Shown here: piece by piece, positions 22,519 to 32,913 of the stretch | Layout: every line of letters begins with the position of its first letter | Numbering within the stretch: position 1 is the first letter of the stretch | NCBI RefSeq assembly: GCF_000092845.1 | Contig: NC_014150.1 | Span: 1,178,001 to 1,242,000 of the forward strand | Direction of reading: 5' to 3' | DNA from: Brachyspira murdochii DSM 12563 | GTDB lineage: Bacteria > Spirochaetota > Brachyspiria > Brachyspirales > Brachyspiraceae | Length of the DNA: 64,000 nucleotides | Notes under the pieces: generated by a model | What the model was told of the DNA's origin: nothing | Seen by the model: the letters and a program-made list of their open reading frames with translations, nothing else | The model's database searches: none | Position numbers and translations under genes: made by a program

Positions 22519-25500
22519 TCACTTACCAGTTGCATTTATAGTATCATAATTTGAAAAATCATCTCTGCTTTCCAAATCTTTCTGCTCATAGTCTTTAAGA
22601 GGTATTTTATTTCTTATAGCAGCATAAACTGTAGGCACTATAACAAGGGTAAATGCTGTTGATAATAAAAGCCCTCCAAGTATAGCCAAAGATAAAGGCT
22701 GATACATTTCGTTTCCGCTTCCGCCTGATAATGCCATAGGTAAAAGTCCTAATATAGTAGTGAGCGTTGTCATAAGTACTGGTCTTAAACGCCTAGGTCC
22801 AGACTCCAATGCAGCTTCATCTCCGCTTATATTTTTTTCATGCATAAGCTGATTCATATAGTCTATAAGCACAATACCATTATTTACTACAATACCTATT
22901 AGTACAATAAATCCTATGCCGCTGTATACACTTAAAGTTTGACGTCCTATAAAAAGTGCTATTAAAGAACCTGCAAAGCCAAAAGGAATTGCAAGTGCTA
23001 TAACAAAAGGTGCTATGAAAGATTCAAACTGACTAGCCATTATAGCATAAACTAATACAAGTGCCAATATCAAAGCCTGAAGAAGCTGTAAGAAAGCATC
23101 ATTCATATCTTCAAAATCGCCTGTATAATTAATATTAAATCCTGAAGGAATAAATACTTCCTGTTTTATTTTTTCCTGCACATCTGTCATTATTTCACTT
23201 AAAGCTCTGTTATATCCAGAGGCTTTTATGGTAGTTATTCTAGTGCTGTCTTTTCTCTCTATTTCTGTAGGTCCGTAACTTTTTTCAACAGTAGCTATAG
23301 AAGATATAGGAACTATACCGCTTGTAGTAGGTATCATAAGTCTTGATATATCGTCTATATTTAATCTGTCTGGCTCGCCCAACTGAACATTAACATCTAT
23401 ATCTGTAACATCAGAATTGGCTGGAGTCATAGTTGTAGCAGTAGTACCTGCAAAACTTGTTTTAACAATATTTGCTATAGTGTTTACATTGATACCCATT
23501 TTGGCAGCTATTTCTCTATTAACATATATTTTAAGTTCCGGATTGGAATCATCTCTGGTAAGTCTTGGTTCTCTTATACCTTCTATATCCGATATTGCAG
23601 CTATTATATTATTGGCTATTTCTGTAGCTTTATCCAAATCATCGCCTACAAGTTCTATCTCTATTTCATTTCCGCCTGTTCCTCCGTCTCTTCCTCCGCT
23701 ATTTATTGCTGAACTTGTTATAGCTGCTATATTAATCTGTGCAGGATAAGAAACCAAAGCATTTCTTGTAAACTCTATATATTCATCAACCGATTTTTTT
23801 CTTCCCTCGCTTTTATCTCTTAACTGTACTCTTATTTCTGCTTTATTTTCATCAGAACCTGATTGTACTCTTGACTGCATTCTGTCAAAATCTTCTCCTA
23901 TGAGATTTTGTATATCGCTTTCCATTCTAGTAACAAATGATTGTGTCTGCTCTGATTTTGTACCAACCGGCATTTCTACATCTATCTTAAACTGACCTTC
24001 ATCTGAAGTAGGAAATCCCTCCTTACCTATAAAAGTTAAACCTAATGCTATTATTACAAATACAACAGACAATGAAGAAATTAATACTTTCTTTTTATTT
24101 TTTATAGAATAATGAAGCACGCTGGAATATAAATTATTAACTCTATTATGAAAGTTTTTATTAACAAAATTTTCTATAGGTATTAAGAACTTAGTTTTTT
24201 TATTCGTTACAAGTCTAGCTCCAAGCATAGGAACTATTGTAAGAGCTACAAATAATGAACCTATCATAGAAACTGTAACTGTAATACATAAATCTCTAAA
24301 TAATTGTCCAGTCTGTCCTTCAACAAAAAGAAAAGGCAAAAATACCGCTATAGTTGTAAGAGTGGAAGCTGATATTGCAAGTGCCACAGAAGAAGTACCG
24401 TTTATAGCTGAAGAATATTTTCCATATCCATTATTTCTATAATAAAATATATTTTCTAAAACTACTATTGAGTTATCAACCATCATACCTATACCCAAAA
24501 CAAGTCCTGATAATGAAATAATATTTAAAGTAATACCCATAAAATACATTAATGTAAATGTGATTATTATTGATATAGGTATAGAAATCGCTATTATAGA
24601 AACTGTTTTTATATTCCATAGATAAAGCATTAATATAATAACGGCAAATAATCCGCCCTGCCAAGCAGTATCAAGAACTCCGTTTATAGATTCATTTACA
24701 TTGTCTGCATTATTAAAAAGTATCTCATATTCTACGCCCTCTGGAAGAGTAAGATTTGCAAGCTGTTTTTGAACTGCTTTAGATACATTAACAGTATTTC
24801 CTCCAGACTCTTTATTGACAGATACGGATATTGCAGGCATACCGTTAATCTTTACTATCTCAGAATCATCACTGTATCCCTGATAAACTCTGCCTATATC
24901 TTTTAATTTTATGGGTGTATCATTTGTTTTTAATGCTACAACAGTATTTTCTATATCTTCTACTGTGGTAAACTCTCCCATAGTTCTTAAAGTATATTTA
25001 TAAACCCCCTCATAAGTTTCTCCTCCTGATAGGTTTTGATTCTCACTTGAAAGAAGAGAGACTATTGTATTAATATCTATTCCGTAGGCATGAAGTCTAT
25101 TTAAAACCAAGTCTACTTTCATCTCAGTTTGAAGTCCGCCTCTAATCTCTGCCCTTGCTACTCCTGAAGCCTGCTCTATTTTATTTAATATCTGATTATC
25201 TATTAAAGTATACAATGCTCCCAAATTATCCGTTCCAAAGAATGCTATTTCCATAACTGGCATCATATCGGTAGAGAATTTAAATACTGTAGGGCTGTCG
25301 GCATCATCTGGAAGCGAATTTTTTACTCCGTCTATTGCTTCTCTTATATCTGCAGTAGCAACAGCTAAATCCGTGCCCCAGTTAAACTCTATAAATACGC
25401 TTGACTCCCCCTCTTGTGAAGTAGAAGTTATTGTATTAATATCGCTTACTGTAGCCACTGCATTTTCTACAATCCTAGTTACAGATTTCTCCACCTCTTC

Positions 25501-25671
25501 AGGTCCTGCATTCTCATATTCTGTTCTTACAGTTATATAAGGAAGCTCCATATCTGGTAAAAAATCTACTGCTAATTTACTTAAACTTACAAAGCCTAAT
25601 ATTAATACTGCTATCATACACATAAAAACCGCTACGGGTCTTTTTACTACCAATTCTATAAAATTTCTCAT
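22519..25671 (-). CDS. RND-family (HAE1-like) efflux transporter
   Basis: A 1050-residue inner-membrane proton antiporter resembling AcrB/MexB. It has the expected twofold layout: a membrane helix near residue 12, a large periplasmic domain, six helices (about 335-560), a second periplasmic domain and six more helices (about 865-1030). The helix-4 motif reads GMMVDNSIVVLENIFYYRN: the first of AcrB's paired aspartates is kept and the second is Asn. It probably exports hydrophobic compounds or lipids. No periplasmic adaptor or outer-membrane channel gene is adjacent, so partners must lie elsewhere. Start ATG with AGGGGTG upstream. A possible ECF-type promoter lies about 67 nt before the start. 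Confidence 0.92.
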   Translation of the reverse strand: MRNFIELVVKRPVAVFMCMIAVLILGFVSLSKLAVDFLPDMELPYITVRTEYENAGPEEVEKSVTRIVENAVATVSDINTITSTSQEGESSVFIEFNWGTDLAVATADIREAIDGVKNSLPDDADSPTVFKFSTDMMPVMEIAFFGTDNLGALYTLIDNQILNKIEQASGVARAEIRGGLQTEMKVDLVLNRLHAYGIDINTIVSLLSSENQNLSGGETYEGVYKYTLRTMGEFTTVEDIENTVVALKTNDTPIKLKDIGRVYQGYSDDSEIVKINGMPAISVSVNKESGGNTVNVSKAVQKQLANLTLPEGVEYEILFNNADNVNESINGVLDTAWQGGLFAVIILMLYLWNIKTVSIIAISIPISIIITFTLMYFMGITLNIISLSGLVLGIGMMVDNSIVVLENIFYYRNNGYGKYSSAINGTSSVALAISASTLTTIAVFLPFLFVEGQTGQLFRDLCITVTVSMIGSLFVALTIVPMLGARLVTNKKTKFLIPIENFVNKNFHNRVNNLYSSVLHYSIKNKKKVLISSLSVVFVIIALGLTFIGKEGFPTSDEGQFKIDVEMPVGTKSEQTQSFVTRMESDIQNLIGEDFDRMQSRVQSGSDENKAEIRVQLRDKSEGRKKSVDEYIEFTRNALVSYPAQINIAAITSSAINSGGRDGGTGGNEIEIELVGDDLDKATEIANNIIAAISDIEGIREPRLTRDDSNPELKIYVNREIAAKMGINVNTIANIVKTSFAGTTATTMTPANSDVTDIDVNVQLGEPDRLNIDDISRLMIPTTSGIVPISSIATVEKSYGPTEIERKDSTRITTIKASGYNRALSEIMTDVQEKIKQEVFIPSGFNINYTGDFEDMNDAFLQLLQALILALVLVYAIMASQFESFIAPFVIALAIPFGFAGSLIALFIGRQTLSVYSGIGFIVLIGIVVNNGIVLIDYMNQLMHEKNISGDEAALESGPRRLRPVLMTTLTTILGLLPMALSGGSGNEMYQPLSLAILGGLLLSTAFTLVIVPTVYAAIRNKIPLKDYEQKDLESRDDFSNYDTINATGK

Positions 25672-25737
25672 TCGCTTTTCACCCCTAATATTTAATATAT
25701 AGCATACAATCTATTTTTTTTTATTTTATCTAATCTT

Positions 25738-25764
25738 TAGACGAATAAAACAAAAAAAAGTTTT
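25738..25764 (-). promoter_or_regulatory. Possible ECF-sigma promoter upstream of the RND gene
   Basis: Minus strand: AAAAC, 16 nt, CGTCTA. The -10 side, TTTTATTCGTCTAAA, closely matches the promoter at 30893-30920. The -35 is poorer (AAAAC instead of GGAAC) and the spacer is one shorter. Confidence 0.3.
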
Positions 25765-25915: not shown

Positions 25916-28900
25916 TCAATCTGAAATATTCTTTAATATGCTAATAATCATAGATATAGATAAAATTATAGTTATTATTATAAGAATAATATTAAGAATA
26001 TTAAAAGCCTCTGTATTAAAAGTTCCTATATACTTTATTATAACGAGAAAAACTCCTACAAAACCTCCAAACATACCGTATAATTTAAGTCTAGTTAAAT
26101 ACTTCTTTGCAAAAGAATTAAATACATCATGTATATTTTTGGCATTCATCTTATCTATCTCTTCTTTTGTAATAGCTGAAAAATCTATTGCATCTATAAT
26201 TAAATTAATATCATCTTCAGCACAATTAATAATCAAATTAAGAAAATAATATTTTAATTTATCATCTATAATAAAAGGTATATCATTTCTAAGTTTTGAA
26301 ATTATCTTTTTTATCTCTTCAGATATGCTTGAGTTTATATATTCATTTTTATCTAAATTATCAAGAATATTATAAATTGATATTATAAAATTATTTAAAT
26401 CAATTAAATTATCATAAAGTAAAAGACGCTCTATATCTGAGTATTTAAAAATATCTTTTAATATATCATCAAAATATTTTTCTATATTCAAACATTCTTT
26501 TATAGTAGTAGGATATAATGAGCTTTCTATATAATTTTTAATATCTTCTGTAACTTTATATCTGTTATTATAAATACTAATGCATAATTTTCTAATGAGT
26601 TCATAAAAATAAATATCCGTATTTTCTAAAAATGATTGAGTATACTTTTCTATTAATTTATAATCTATATTCTTAACAGAAAAATCAAATAATTTATCAA
26701 AAACATTTAATATCAAATACTCATTATTATTTATAGTGTCATTTAAATATTTTCTTAAACTATTTTCTTCATAAAGTTTTTCATTACTATTTTGTCCTAT
26801 AAAATAAGAAACATTTTTTGATAAAATATTTTCATCTAAAAAATTAAAACTTATATTCATAATATCATATTTCATATCATCAATAAAAATAGGAATCTTT
26901 TTATTAATTAAATTTAATATTATTCTGTCTGTCAAATCTATAACCAAATCATTTTTCAAAGGAATATCTTTTATAATGGTCTCTCTTATCTCATACCTAT
27001 TTTCTAATAATGTTTCATTTAATTTTTTACTCATCATAGAAAATATAAACTCACTGTTAGACCTAACAAGGTTTACAATTTCTCCGCCAAACATCTCCTT
27101 TATTTTTTTGCTGCTGTTTTTTGATATCTCATTATCAATAAAATATGCAGCAATATAAAATATTCTATCCCTTACAGAATTTGAATTAATAGCTTTTGTG
27201 GCATTTAAAACTATTATATTTTTAAATTTACTTAAATCTTTTATATTATCTATTATTATATTTTTTATAAAGTCTTTTAAGTTTATAATATTAATATTAG
27301 AAAGTAATAGTTTTAATACTGAAAATATATTATCATTTATATAATTTATTAATACTTCTTTATTATTTTTTATAATATTATATATATAATTATTTTTGAT
27401 AATTAGTTTAATAATACCAGTCTTTATAAAATCAATATTATTAATTATAATAGTGTTAATACTTTCTTTTAAATATGAAAATATATTTAATTTATTTATT
27501 TTCTCATCTTCAAGCATATAATTAAAAAACTTTTTATAATTATCTTTTATCAAATTATCTTCTATATCTTTTTTATTTTCTAAAATACTAATAATACCTT
27601 CTTTTTCCATAAGCCTATCATTAACAAAATCAGACATTGAAGATGCAAATCTGCTTTTCTCACATGCAACAGCCCCCCAAAAAACTTTTTTCTTTATGCC
27701 GAATAAAGGCTCATAAGGCTTGAATATAGAATAAATAGCAAGAACATTCGTTATAAATCCTATAAAAGTGTATACCAAAGGCTCTGCTATATAATTTAAA
27801 TATCCTAAAGAAGGATTAAATGAATTGACTGGAAATAAATACGCTGTTAATAGTCCAAATACAAATCCCAAAAAAGCACCTAATATATTTATAGGCTCTA
27901 ATTCCTTACCCATAAAATCATTGGCCATTTTTGCTATTTCATCTTTATTTAATTTGCCCATATTGTTTTTTATTGTTTTTATTACAATAGAATCTATTAC
28001 TGATGAAATAAAATCCTTCTCTTTATTTATAAACTTTATTATTGAACTATAGGCATTATTATTAAAAAAATTATCTATTTGTTTTTCTTTTTTTATAATT
28101 ATTTCATTTATATTATAATCAGAATATTTATCTATAATTGTTTCAAATAAATTAATTATCTCTTCATAAATAGAATTATTAAATAAATCATTAATAGTTT
28201 TTTCTTTATATTTTAAGTATACATTATATAAATAATTTTCTATACTTGATTTATTTTCTTTAATGATAACACTAATATCAAAACTATAAAAAAACTTATT
28301 TAATGTTTCTTCATTTATAGAATCTATTTTTTTATATACAAATGCTGAAACCTTATCAAAATTTGAAACAGCATATTTAATAATCTCTTTTTCAACAAAA
28401 CTATATAATTCTTTTATCATATAAGAATCAGCTAATAAACTTATCTTCATATTCAAAAACTTTTCTATCAAAGAATTAGGAAACTCTTTGATATTGAATA
28501 TCACAATATCTCTTAAAACATTTTTTAAAGTATCCTCATTAACCTCAATACTTTTTAATATTTTAGATATTTTTGTATTATTAAGATAATTTATTATATC
28601 ATCACACACTGCCTCAACTAATTTCTCATTATTATCTTTATACTTTTGAGTATATTCTATAATTTTATTAACTATCTTATATTTTGAAGCTATATCATTT
28701 AAAAAAACTTTTCTAATAGCTTTTACTATAAACTGCCAAAAAACTCCGTCTATATTTTCTATTTCTTCATCAACAGCCTTTTCTATAATGCATTCTAATT
28801 TTGATTTATTTTCATTTATTATAGGAATTATTATATCTATTAATTTGGGAAGTATATCTGATACTATATCTTTAATTCTATCTGATATATTATGATTTAA

Positions 28901-29731
28901 AAGTTCATATATTGTTTTATCAGTATTTTTTAATTTCATATAGAGTTTATCTATTACATAATCAACTATATTTTCAAATTCTTTTTTATTTGATAATTCT
29001 TTGATAATATCTTTTATCTCTAAAATGTCATTTATAGAAAATAATTCCTTTATTTTTTTATCCGATAGGGAAAAGAAAAAATCATAAAAAAGATTTTCTA
29101 TATTTAAATTATTAATTAAAGATATTAATAAACTCTCTATTTTTTTATTATTATTTGACAAGTTATTAATAATATTATCAGATATTTCTTTTAATATATC
29201 TTTATATTTTTCATTATTATTTTTATATATTTTATTTGCTGCATTTAATATAAAATGATTATTCTTCTCATAAGATATGAAAGACTCTGTAATACTTTTT
29301 ATAATATGTTTGAATTGACTTTCATCTATAATCTGCTCTAGTTTTATATTTTTAGATAATTCATTTAATATTGTTAGTATATTTTCATTAGCATCTGTTT
29401 TTATCCAATTTATTATATTTTCTTTAGACTCATTAAACCCTGCTACATTTTTTATTTTTATATCTGTTTTTGATATTAATTGATTTTTTATTTTCTTAAA
29501 AAACTCTTTTATATTGTTTTGAAACTTATCTTTTATTATTTCTTTATATATAGAATCATAATTAATAATCTTTTTAGAAATCATAATACTTATTTCATCA
29601 ATAAATCTGTCTTTTTCTCTTGCTATTATTCCATTATTAGAAAATAACTTTTTTAATGCTATCGTATTAGTATAATAACCAGCAGCAGCTCCGAGAAAAG
29701 CTCCTAACATTAATTGAAAAAATAAATCCAT
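25916..29731 (-). CDS. Giant membrane protein with two DUF445 units
   Basis: A 1271-residue protein, about three times the usual DUF445 length. Each half has a DUF445-like membrane entry: GAAAGYYTNTIALKKLF at residues about 14-30, and GFITNVLAIYSIFKPYEPLF near residue 660, followed by FWGAVACEKSRFASSMSDFV. Each half also has a closing membrane segment (LGAFLGFVFGLLTAYLF near 620, and a two-helix C-terminus). The long intervening stretches are helical, Asn/Ile/Lys-rich and probably extracytoplasmic or peripheral. DUF445 proteins are envelope proteins of unsettled function. The start ATG has only a weak ribosome site. It begins 19 nt after the 29751-30809 gene, so the two are likely co-transcribed. 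Confidence 0.75.
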   Translation of the reverse strand: MDLFFQLMLGAFLGAAAGYYTNTIALKKLFSNNGIIAREKDRFIDEISIMISKKIINYDSIYKEIIKDKFQNNIKEFFKKIKNQLISKTDIKIKNVAGFNESKENIINWIKTDANENILTILNELSKNIKLEQIIDESQFKHIIKSITESFISYEKNNHFILNAANKIYKNNNEKYKDILKEISDNIINNLSNNNKKIESLLISLINNLNIENLFYDFFFSLSDKKIKELFSINDILEIKDIIKELSNKKEFENIVDYVIDKLYMKLKNTDKTIYELLNHNISDRIKDIVSDILPKLIDIIIPIINENKSKLECIIEKAVDEEIENIDGVFWQFIVKAIRKVFLNDIASKYKIVNKIIEYTQKYKDNNEKLVEAVCDDIINYLNNTKISKILKSIEVNEDTLKNVLRDIVIFNIKEFPNSLIEKFLNMKISLLADSYMIKELYSFVEKEIIKYAVSNFDKVSAFVYKKIDSINEETLNKFFYSFDISVIIKENKSSIENYLYNVYLKYKEKTINDLFNNSIYEEIINLFETIIDKYSDYNINEIIIKKEKQIDNFFNNNAYSSIIKFINKEKDFISSVIDSIVIKTIKNNMGKLNKDEIAKMANDFMGKELEPINILGAFLGFVFGLLTAYLFPVNSFNPSLGYLNYIAEPLVYTFIGFITNVLAIYSIFKPYEPLFGIKKKVFWGAVACEKSRFASSMSDFVNDRLMEKEGIISILENKKDIEDNLIKDNYKKFFNYMLEDEKINKLNIFSYLKESINTIIINNIDFIKTGIIKLIIKNNYIYNIIKNNKEVLINYINDNIFSVLKLLLSNINIINLKDFIKNIIIDNIKDLSKFKNIIVLNATKAINSNSVRDRIFYIAAYFIDNEISKNSSKKIKEMFGGEIVNLVRSNSEFIFSMMSKKLNETLLENRYEIRETIIKDIPLKNDLVIDLTDRIILNLINKKIPIFIDDMKYDIMNISFNFLDENILSKNVSYFIGQNSNEKLYEENSLRKYLNDTINNNEYLILNVFDKLFDFSVKNIDYKLIEKYTQSFLENTDIYFYELIRKLCISIYNNRYKVTEDIKNYIESSLYPTTIKECLNIEKYFDDILKDIFKYSDIERLLLYDNLIDLNNFIISIYNILDNLDKNEYINSSISEEIKKIISKLRNDIPFIIDDKLKYYFLNLIINCAEDDINLIIDAIDFSAITKEEIDKMNAKNIHDVFNSFAKKYLTRLKLYGMFGGFVGVFLVIIKYIGTFNTEAFNILNIILIIITIILSISMIISILKNISD

Positions 29732-30892: not shown

Positions 30893-30920
30893 GGAACTTT
30901 TATCTTTTTTTATTCGTCTA
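30893..30920 (+). promoter_or_regulatory. ECF-sigma promoter 1
   Basis: GGAAC (30893-30897), 17 nt, CGTCTA (30915-30920). The identical bipartite motif with the identical spacer occurs at 31342-31369. Both stand just before genes of a cluster that encodes an ECF sigma factor, which is the usual autoregulated arrangement. The spacing from CGTCTA to the ATG is 27 nt. Confidence 0.8.
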
Positions 30921-30947
30921 AAAAAATTAAATAGAAGGATTTTATGT

Positions 30948-31340
30948 ATGAAAAAATTAATACTTATTATTTTATTAATATTCAGCAGTTTATATGCCGA
31001 TGATACTTTCAATATAAGCGATAATTCATTAAAAGTTCTTCATGATGCAGGAGTTGAAATAAATCAGGAACAGAAAAAAAATATAAATTTGATAGTAAAA
31101 AAATATATGCCTTATATAAAACAATTACTATTAGAAATAAAAGATATAGAGTCAAAACTTAATAATGAATACAAAAAAACTGACGTTAATTTAAACATAA
31201 TAAAGAAATTATTATTTGAAAAAAAGACAAAAGAGGCAGATTTTGACTATATTATAATGTCATGCGATTTGGATATATTAGAATTATTTTCTAATGATGA
31301 TATAAAAAGAATAAAATACTATATAATTTTTAAAAAATAA
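30948..31340 (+). CDS. Small exported protein, Spy/CpxP-like
   Basis: 130 residues with a cleavable signal peptide (KKLILIILLIFSSLYADD). The mature chain is helical and highly charged. It shares its plan with the next gene: an IxLTxEQ-like turn (VEINQEQKKNINLIVKKY), a long amphipathic helix, and a terminal ILELFSNDDIKRIK. This layout resembles Spy/CpxP periplasmic chaperone-like proteins, but the LTxxQ motifs are degenerate, so the family call is tentative. GAAGGA precedes the ATG. It is driven by its own ECF promoter. Confidence 0.7.
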   Translation: MKKLILIILLIFSSLYADDTFNISDNSLKVLHDAGVEINQEQKKNINLIVKKYMPYIKQLLLEIKDIESKLNNEYKKTDVNLNIIKKLLFEKKTKEADFDYIIMSCDLDILELFSNDDIKRIKYYIIFKK

Positions 31341-31341
31341 G

Positions 31342-31369
31342 GGAACTTTTAACAAGTTTATATCGTCTA
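31342..31369 (+). promoter_or_regulatory. ECF-sigma promoter 2
   Basis: GGAAC (31342-31346), 17 nt, CGTCTA (31364-31369). It extends to GGGAACTTTTA at the -35, matching promoter 1. It would drive the 31429 gene and, by read-through, the sigma and anti-sigma genes. Confidence 0.8.
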
Positions 31370-31428
31370 ACTAATTAAAGATAATAGATGATATATAATA
31401 ATAATATGTATACAGATAAGGAGAGTTT

Positions 31429-31875
31429 ATGAAAAAAATATTTTTGGCATTGTCTTTGATATTTGTATTATCTTTATCTATTTTTGCTCAGCCAGGACCG
31501 AAAGGACCGGGACCTCATGGACCAAGACATAGGAGAGGAGCTGAATTTGATAAGAGATTAGGCAATGATCCTTTGCAGTATTTTAGAAAAATAGGTATAA
31601 CACTTACAGATGAACAAGCTGAGATAATGTATGATATAGCAATAAAATTTATCACAGAAGATGAACCTATCAGACTTGAGATAGAAAGAATAAATAATGA
31701 CATTAGAATGGAGTTAATGAAAGAAAATACTGACAGAAACATATTAAAAGAGCTAATAAAAAGCAAAAAAGAGCAGGAAGCTTTGAGAGATTATTTAAGA
31801 ATAGTAAGAGATTTAGACATAATAGATGTGCTTACTCCAAGCCAAAAGGCTTTATTAAATAAAAAGATGCAGTAA
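31429..31875 (+). CDS. Exported Spy/CpxP-like protein with Pro/Gly/His-rich linker
   Basis: 148 residues. The signal peptide (MKKIFLALSLIFVLSLSIFA) is followed by an unusual GPKGPGPHGPRHRRG segment, then a helical domain with GITLTDEQAEIMYDIAIKFI (an LTxxQ-type motif), a long charged helix, and a terminal VLTPSQKALLNKKM (second LTxxQ-like motif). Spy/CpxP relatives bind misfolded or envelope-stress ligands in the periplasm. The histidine-rich linker could also bind metal. It lies 17 nt before the sigma gene and has a strong ribosome site (AAGGAGAG). Confidence 0.75.
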   Translation: MKKIFLALSLIFVLSLSIFAQPGPKGPGPHGPRHRRGAEFDKRLGNDPLQYFRKIGITLTDEQAEIMYDIAIKFITEDEPIRLEIERINNDIRMELMKENTDRNILKELIKSKKEQEALRDYLRIVRDLDIIDVLTPSQKALLNKKMQ

Positions 31876-31891
31876 TATAGGTTTATAAGGT

Positions 31892-32443
31892 ATGAGCGGT
31901 GCTGGTATTATGGCGTATGAAGATAATATAGAAGCTTTTAAAGCAGGTAATGAAGAAGCTTACAAAGAGCTTGTAGAAATGTATAAAAAACCGCTGTTTA
32001 ATTTGGTTTATTCTATCATTTCAAACAGCGAAGAAGCAGAAGAAATCGTGCAGGACGTTTTTGTAAGTTTTTATATAAAAAGAGAAAGTTTTGAAGGCAG
32101 AAGTAAAATATATACTTGGCTTTACAGAGTATCTTTTAATAGGGCAGTAGATCATATAAGAAAAAGAGAAAGAGAGAAAAAATACAGGATAAAAGAATAT
32201 AGAAACTCAGAAGTGCAGGAATCTGATAATGATAATAGTATTAATAAGATTATATTAGCAGAGGCATTATCAAAGTTGGAAGATGATTTTCGTATACCGC
32301 TTATGATGGCAGAATATGAAAATTATTCTTATAATGAAATATCTGAAACACTGGATCTGCCTGTTAATACGGTAAGAACCAGAATATTCAGAGCTAGAAA
32401 AAAACTTTTATCTATTATGCAAAAGATGGGGGTAACTTTATGA
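31892..32443 (+). CDS. ECF (extracytoplasmic function) RNA polymerase sigma factor
   Basis: 183 residues with only sigma regions 2 and 4. Region 2: LFNLVYSIISNSEEAEEIVQ, DVFVSFYIKRESFEGRSKIY and TWLYRVSFNRAVDHIRKR. Region 4: a helix-turn-helix in YNEISETLDLPVNTVRTRIF and RARKKL. It presumably reads the GGAAC-N17-CGTCTA promoters just upstream. The first ATG is close to an AAGG, and a second in-frame ATG at 31910 (MAYEDN) is also possible. Its stop overlaps the anti-sigma start by four bases (ATGA), implying translational coupling. Confidence 0.92.
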   Translation: MSGAGIMAYEDNIEAFKAGNEEAYKELVEMYKKPLFNLVYSIISNSEEAEEIVQDVFVSFYIKRESFEGRSKIYTWLYRVSFNRAVDHIRKREREKKYRIKEYRNSEVQESDNDNSINKIILAEALSKLEDDFRIPLMMAEYENYSYNEISETLDLPVNTVRTRIFRARKKLLSIMQKMGVTL

Positions 32444-32913
32444 AAAATAATCATGAATATTATGAAATGCTTATAAGCAGATATAAAGACAATGATTTAG
32501 ACAGCAATGAAATATTTGAGATGGAAAAACATCTGTCTTCTTGTAAATCATGTCAGAAGTTTAAAGAAGAACTTGATTCTATGTCATCTATACTATGCGG
32601 TAAAAAACTTATAATAGTACATAAAAAGAAAATATTTAATAAAAATAAAGTAATAGCTTCTATAGGATCTCTGGCAGCTGCTTTATTAATATTTGCAGGT
32701 GTTAATAGCCTATATAAACAGCAGTCTGACGATAATTCTGCTATAATAGCAAATAACTCTTCTTCAATGAAAACAGTTATAGACTATAATATAAGCGATG
32801 AAGACTATACTCCTCTATCAAGTTATTTCAGCTACAGCGATGAAGAAAATACAGATGAAGGAAGCGAAGAAATATCAATAATGTCAGCTTATATTTATTA
32901 TATGGGCAAATAA
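32440..32913 (+). CDS. Zinc-finger transmembrane anti-sigma factor
   Basis: 157 residues. The N-terminal anti-sigma domain has the zinc motif HLSSCKSCQKF (HxxxCxxC, residues about 30-37). A single membrane helix (VIASIGSLAAALLIFAGVNS, about 70-90) and a short acidic external tail of about 65 residues follow. This ZAS layout holds the ECF sigma factor at the membrane until a signal releases it. It is coupled to the sigma gene by an ATGA overlap. The external part has no recognisable sensor domain. Confidence 0.88.
   Translation: MKNNHEYYEMLISRYKDNDLDSNEIFEMEKHLSSCKSCQKFKEELDSMSSILCGKKLIIVHKKKIFNKNKVIASIGSLAAALLIFAGVNSLYKQQSDDNSAIIANNSSSMKTVIDYNISDEDYTPLSSYFSYSDEENTDEGSEEISIMSAYIYYMGK

What the first reader, a model, noticed from the sequence alone, without database searches (positions are those of the whole stretch)
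30893..32913. Self-contained ECF stress circuit with two identical-architecture promoters
GGAACTTTT and CGTCTA with exactly 17 nt between GGAAC and CGTCTA occur twice within 480 bp, each before a small exported Spy/CpxP-like gene, followed by an ECF sigma gene and a ZAS-type anti-sigma gene overlapping by ATGA. Repeated motif plus gene content make autoregulation very likely. It gives a concrete promoter model for the organism's regulon. The anti-sigma external tail has no known sensor, so the signal is open.
Basis: partly seen in the sequence, partly recalled or inferred. Interest (0 to 1): 0.65.

Follow-up and report, generated by a model that had tools for sequence, protein, structure and literature searches.

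The report
Brachyspira envelope-stress sigma factor regulon
The two promoter sites are real and belong to a stress-response switch found across the intestinal spirochaete genus Brachyspira, which probably turns on protein-protecting factors, efflux pumps and, in some species, small RNAs when the cell envelope is damaged.

Summary
Observation confirmed to the base: GGAACTTTT-N13-CGTCTA at 30893-30920 and 31342-31369, before two small exported genes, then an ECF sigma gene and a zinc-type (ZAS) anti-sigma gene overlapping by ATGA. Not chance: the exact motif occurs 8 times in the genome (about 0.01 expected). A slightly relaxed form is in 26 of 26 Brachyspira genomes, about 190 sites, against 1 for the reversed pattern. 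All 15 Brachyspira ECF loci fetched by protein alone carry it upstream.

"Self-contained" is wrong. The sites head a genus-wide regulon: Spy/CpxP-type proteins, TolC-RND operons, RND pumps, a rhodanese, and the sigma operon itself. A variant -35 (AAAAC) lies before an RND pump in 11 of 11 loci read; one is in this window (25737-25764, minus). In two clades, sites precede apparent free-standing small RNAs.

Best reading: an autoregulated ECF circuit that reads promoters like sigma-E and controls what E. coli places under BaeSR/CpxAR. The first small gene is a diverged paralogue of the second. The anti-sigma tail carries two conserved motifs. Signal, proteolysis and RNA function are untested. 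New variant of a known kind.

The parts
30893..30920 (+). ECF promoter 1, GGAACTTTT-N13-CGTCTA
30948..31340 (+). 130-aa exported protein, diverged paralogue of the Spy-like protein (LTxxQ motifs lost)
31342..31369 (+). ECF promoter 2, GGAACTTTT-N13-CGTCTA, 1 nt after the stop codon of the first gene
31429..31875 (+). 148-aa exported Spy/CpxP-like protein with both LTxxQ motifs
31892..32443 (+). ECF sigma factor (an in-frame ATG at 31910 is an alternative start)
32440..32913 (+). ZAS-type membrane anti-sigma factor, ATGA overlap with the ECF gene
32530..32553 (+). Hx3Cx2C zinc motif of the anti-sigma factor, residues 31-38
   Evidence: invariant in 15 of 15
32803..32835 (+). conserved external motif 1, DYTPLSSYFSY, residues 122-132
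32875..32910 (+). conserved C-terminal motif SIMSAYIYYMGK, residues 146-157
   Evidence: short helix in the low-confidence model
25737..25764 (-). variant ECF promoter AAAACTTTT-N12-CGTCTAA
22519..25671 (-). RND (AcrB/AcrD/AcrF family) efflux pump gene, probable regulon member

Best explanation
This is the control operon of a Brachyspira-wide envelope-stress regulon. The ECF sigma factor reads GGAACTTTT-N12/13-CGTCTAA, with AAAAC accepted at RND-pump promoters. It drives its own operon through one or two in-series promoters and also drives Spy/CpxP-type periplasmic proteins, TolC and RND efflux, a rhodanese and other envelope genes; in some species also short non-coding RNAs. The membrane ZAS anti-sigma holds it inactive. 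Envelope damage most likely triggers release through the anti-sigma's external tail, with the operon's Spy/CpxP-like protein acting as periplasmic chaperone and feedback brake. The two-promoter form most likely arose by tandem duplication of a promoter-plus-spy unit in one clade. Shown by sequence: motif, gene identities, genus-wide conservation, target classes, sigma-E-like recognition helix, conserved anti-sigma motifs. Inferred: that this ECF reads the motif (about 0.9 likely), the signal, proteolytic release (about 0.4), feedback by the Spy-like protein (about 0.4), duplication history, RNA function.
For: Motif 8 exact against 0.01 expected. 26 of 26 genomes, about 190 sites, reversed control 1. 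An unforced A after CGTCTA in 118 of 118 sites. Independent test: of loci fetched by ECF protein alone, 15 of 15 Brachyspira loci carry the exact motif within 1.1 kb upstream (11 with two sites, 4 with one) and 0 of 5 distant ECF loci do. Targets are mostly exported or envelope genes: 62 of 104 sites with a called ORF fall in a cluster of small exported proteins, 11 precede tolC, 8 a rhodanese. AAAAC variant: 22 sites, control 0; 11 of 11 read loci precede RND pumps. Recognition helix like E. coli sigma-E, whose -35 box is GGAACTTTT (PMC1804206); the only other ECF in the genome has an unlike helix and partner. CpxP, ZraP, Spy and CnrX are the nearest solved folds of the Spy-like protein. An RseP-like protease and one HtrA are present.
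Against: No transcript, binding or knock-out data; the held library returned no paper on Brachyspira ECF factors. A few sites lie before non-envelope genes: purB-like in G019, chemotaxis receptors in G007 and G009, nitroreductase-like and dehydrogenase-like genes in G003. The anti-sigma tail is mostly disordered in a low-confidence model, and no separate DegS-like protease was found. Foldseek E-values for the Spy-like model are weak (0.02-0.2) although probability is 1.0.
Confidence: 0.85

Rival explanations
1. A CnrYXH-like metal-sensing circuit: the Spy-like protein is a metal sensor that frees the ECF from the anti-sigma when metal binds, and the RND pumps export the metal.
For: Same layout of ECF, anti-sigma and a Metal_resist-fold protein with RND targets; CnrX and NccX are among the structural matches. 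One site lies just downstream of a copper-ATPase-like gene.
Against: No His, Met or Cys is invariant in the mature Spy-like protein, so the CnrX-type metal site is absent; the protein has a cleavable-looking signal peptide, not an anchor; the anti-sigma is a zinc-finger type, unlike CnrY.
Confidence: 0.15
2. The Spy-like and 130-aa proteins are only effectors (chaperones) and play no part in sensing; the anti-sigma is cleaved by HtrA/RseP in response to another signal.
For: Many Spy-type paralogues elsewhere in the regulon are plainly outputs. RseP-like and HtrA proteins exist.
Against: A spy gene heads the sigma operon in every orthologous operon read, closer linkage than a mere output needs.
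Confidence: 0.35
3. The motif belongs to another sigma factor or to a repressor, and the ECF gene is merely one more target.
For: No biochemical link between this ECF and the motif; a second ECF exists (L009).
Against: Two-box layout with sigma-E-like sequence and fixed spacing; sigma-E-like recognition helix in this ECF, an unlike helix in the other; the site is upstream of every Brachyspira orthologue of this ECF.
Confidence: 0.06

Closest known systems
Enterobacterial sigma-E (RpoE-RseA) response
   Same: -35 box GGAACTTTT is the same (PMC1804206); sigma recognition helix very similar; membrane anti-sigma; RseP-like protease and an HtrA present; possible sRNA arm.
   Different: ZAS-type anti-sigma; no RseB gene in the operon; -10 is CGTCTAA; regulon is Spy/RND rather than outer-membrane assembly; no separate DegS found.
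BaeSR / CpxAR envelope responses
   Same: Target set: core E. coli BaeSR regulon is given as spy, mdtA and acrD, that is Spy plus RND pumps (PMC3160322); a CpxP-fold protein in the control operon.
   Different: Those are two-component systems; here the controller is an ECF sigma factor with a ZAS anti-sigma.
CnrYXH of Cupriavidus metallidurans
   Same: ECF, anti-sigma and a Metal_resist-fold periplasmic protein with RND efflux as target (layout from general knowledge; fold match).
   Different: No conserved metal ligands in the Spy-like protein and no membrane anchor on it; different anti-sigma class.
Fusobacterium nucleatum sigma-E with sRNAs FoxI and FoxJ
   Same: Anaerobic, host-associated, AT-rich non-proteobacterium whose ECF drives sRNAs; lacks Hfq (PMC11005410), and no Hfq was found here.
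   Different: There the sRNAs are proven and oxygen is an inducer; here both are predictions. Sequences of the two sigma systems were not compared.

Membership tests
ECF sigma factors | sigma regions 2 and 4 only, in a protein of about 180 aa | tested here: met
   PF04542 2e-15 and PF08281 2e-14; TIGR02937 above cut-off
ECF sigma factors | transcribes its own promoter | not testable with these tools
   motif upstream of the sigma operon in 15 of 15 Brachyspira loci fetched by protein; no transcription data
ZAS anti-sigma factors | Hx3Cx2C zinc motif in the N-terminal anti-sigma domain | tested here: met
   H31-x3-C35-x2-C38 invariant in 15 of 15; zf-HC2 above cut-off
ZAS anti-sigma factors | binds and inhibits the partner sigma | not testable with these tools
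   gene overlap only
Spy/CpxP (LTxxQ) proteins: gene 31429-31875 | two LTxxQ motifs | tested here: met
   L59-T60-x2-Q63 and L135-T136-P137-x-Q139; all of these invariant in 14 of 14 except T60 (90% or more)
Spy/CpxP (LTxxQ) proteins: gene 31429-31875 | long-helix hairpin fold | tested here: met
   AlphaFold pLDDT 81; Foldseek CpxP, ZraP, Spy prob about 1.0, though E 0.02-0.1
Spy/CpxP (LTxxQ) proteins: gene 30948-31340 | two LTxxQ motifs | tested here: not met
   the motifs are not kept; linked to the family only through its paralogue
CnrYXH | conserved His/Glu/Met metal site in the X protein | tested here: not met
   no invariant His, Met or Cys in the mature protein
RpoE-RseA sigma-E system | GGAACTT-type -35 box | tested here: met
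   GGAACTTTT
RpoE-RseA sigma-E system | RseA-type anti-sigma with RseB in the operon | tested here: not met
   anti-sigma is zf-HC2 with no solved relative by sequence; next gene is purN-like on the other strand

The most novel reading that the evidence does not exclude
A spirochaete stress sigma factor with a non-coding arm and a docking sensor. In B. catarrhinii and its relative G001 it drives two tandem ~90-nt RNAs, one with a stretch complementary to a strong translation start (GAGGAG-TCTCAT-ATGAAAAAA), which would silence envelope mRNAs without Hfq. The Spy/CpxP-like protein docks on the conserved C-terminal motif of the anti-sigma tail and leaves it when misfolded proteins appear.
Probability: 0.2. 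Interest if true: 0.72.

Novelty: new variant of a known kind. Interest (0 to 1): 0.5.

Why it matters
It gives Brachyspira a sharp promoter model and a ready list of predicted stress genes, including several RND efflux pumps and TolC. It suggests that sigma-E-type promoter reading, Spy-type chaperones and RND efflux, which E. coli splits between sigma-E and BaeSR/CpxAR, are joined here under one ECF factor. The non-coding targets, if expressed, would be a further case, after Fusobacterium, of sRNAs driven by an envelope-stress sigma outside Proteobacteria.

Tried and rejected
Rfam on the non-coding loci: nothing near gathering scores. Target search for the tandem RNAs: the only perfect complements in G001 and G003 are the RNA genes themselves; weaker matches hit unrelated genes that differ between the two species, so no target is claimed. 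The terminator scan of L024 returned none although each RNA ends in a GC stem plus T-rich tail, probably because the stem is extended into the T-run; folding z-scores of -3.4 and -4.5 were used instead. The GGAAC...CGTCTA match at G000:465417 lies inside an ABC-transporter gene and lacks the TTTT extension; treated as chance. The B. murdochii-type ORF-free unit (G000:634316-634543) is not established as a defined sRNA: z only -2.35, and well conserved only in three close species. ECF relatives outside Brachyspira were only 26-31% identical, lack the motif upstream, and were not studied further. The exact-17 spacer was rejected as a defining feature. Counting motif-bearing sigma operons among loci fetched by the motif would be circular; loci fetched by protein were used instead. 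Literature searches for Brachyspira ECF factors, small RNAs and transcriptomes gave nothing on this system.

Full report
Observation. Both sites, their spacing, the gene order and the ATGA overlap are exactly as described. The window lies in a 3,241,804-base single-contig genome. Record titles of near-identical ECF loci name the genus as Brachyspira; the genome size suggests B. murdochii (from memory).

Chance. GGAACTTTT-N12/13-CGTCTA occurs 8 times exactly. About 0.01 is expected from composition, and six order-3 Markov genomes gave none. A ninth site with one change, GGAACTATT, precedes tolC. Across 26 genus genomes GGAACTNTT-N12/13-CGTCTA is present in all, about 190 sites, against a single match for the reversed pattern. 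I read 118 of these sites: an A follows CGTCTA in every one although the pattern did not ask for it, and the spacer between GGAAC and CGTCTA is 16 in 85 and 17 in 33. An independent test used loci fetched by the ECF protein alone: 15 of 15 Brachyspira loci carry the exact motif upstream, 11 with two sites and 4 with one, and 0 of 5 distant ECF loci do.

Regulon. In this genome the sites precede: the two small exported genes of the finding; a rhodanese (Pfam 9e-14); a set of three small exported proteins, one Metal_resist 2e-11; a DUF4405 membrane protein; tolC with an RND adaptor; a small lipoprotein-like gene followed by an RND pump; an LTXXQ-like protein; and an intergenic stretch with no ORF. 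The same classes recur in the other species, with PepSY-like, DUF305 and an outer-membrane-like protein in some. Sixty-two of the 104 sites with a called ORF fall in one cluster of small exported proteins; that cluster was built without a low-complexity filter, so some links may rest on repeats.

A variant -35 box. AAAACTTTT-N12/13-CGTCTAA has 22 sites in 15 genomes and none for the reversed control. In all 11 loci read, the next gene is an RND pump. One is in this window, 65 bp before the pump at 22519-25671. Its relative in G001 carries the exact GGAAC form (L020).

The small exported proteins. The 148-aa protein keeps both LTxxQ motifs, is closest to CpxP among solved sequences (E 0.003), and its model (pLDDT 81) matches CpxP, ZraP, Spy and CnrX (probability 1.0, E 0.02-0.2). 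The 130-aa protein is its diverged paralogue and occurs in the species with two promoters; G001, G003, G010, G013, G016 and G017 have one promoter and one spy gene. I infer a tandem duplication of promoter plus gene. Promoter 2 starts 1 nt after the first gene's stop and no terminator was called between them, so promoter 1 probably also feeds the sigma gene.

Sigma and promoter. The ECF is nearest SigW and RpoE in curated models and solved structures. Its recognition helix PVNTVRTRIFRARKKL resembles E. coli sigma-E PVGTVRSRIFRAREAI, whose -35 box is also GGAACTTTT (PMC1804206). The other ECF in the genome has an unlike helix and partner. This is why I assign the motif to the ECF of this locus; it remains an inference.

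Anti-sigma. H5, H31, C35 and C38 are invariant in 15 orthologues. The external tail varies in length and sequence but keeps a motif around DYxPLSsYFsY and a C-terminal motif with an invariant S-x-Y-x2-Y. The model is poor (pLDDT 58), with a short helix at the C-terminus. Conserved islands in a variable tail suggest docking or cleavage sites. The genome has an RseP-like protease and one HtrA, so regulated proteolysis is possible but untested.

Non-coding targets. In G001 two sites 169 bp apart each lead into a ~90-nt unit ending in a strong hairpin and T-rich tail. Folding is more stable than shuffles (z -3.4 and -4.5). The first RNA contains UUUUUUUUCAUAUGAGACUCCUC, the complement of a ribosome site plus ATGAAAAAA. 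No target could be shown. In this genome the site at 634517-634543 also precedes an ORF-free stretch between a catalase gene and a MoxR-like gene, conserved in two close relatives. Rfam does not know them. No Hfq was found, as is also reported for F. nucleatum, which nevertheless uses sigma-E-dependent sRNAs (PMC11005410).

Comparison. At the promoter it works like sigma-E. By targets it resembles BaeSR, whose core E. coli regulon is given as spy plus the RND genes mdtA and acrD (PMC3160322). By gene content it recalls CnrYXH, but the metal-ligand test failed. The held library returned nothing on Brachyspira ECF factors; that is not proof of absence, since many subscription papers are not held.

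Noticed in passing
G000:C1:1502400, 1940289, 2564829 (L012-L014) and 1512604, 1950493, 2575178: Apparently three copies of an element at least 10 kb long, each with a 130-aa protein matching sigma-70 region 4 at the same score and the same GGAACTTTTATTTCTTCACCTCTTTTA sequence about 10.2 kb away; perhaps a triplicated prophage or mobile element.
   Followed up: no
G000:C1:634316-634753 (L002): ORF-free stretch behind a sigma site, between catalase and MoxR-like genes, with repeated TTTGGAGGTTTATG elements, one of them in the loop of a long stem; a weaker tandem site lies 210 bp upstream.
   Followed up: partly
L046 and L098: Exact sigma sites precede genes for chemotaxis-receptor-like proteins in two species.
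   Followed up: no
L036 (G019:C5:60628): The smallest genome of the set (2.0 Mb) has a single site, before a purB-like gene; it may have lost the circuit.
   Followed up: no
window 25916-29731, minus: 1271-aa membrane-anchored protein, no family assigned here, lying between the RND pump and the next gene upstream of the finding.
   Followed up: no
L009 (G000:C1:1026075, minus): The genome's second ECF sigma gene, downstream of a ClpX-like gene and followed by a small membrane protein of another type.
   Followed up: partly
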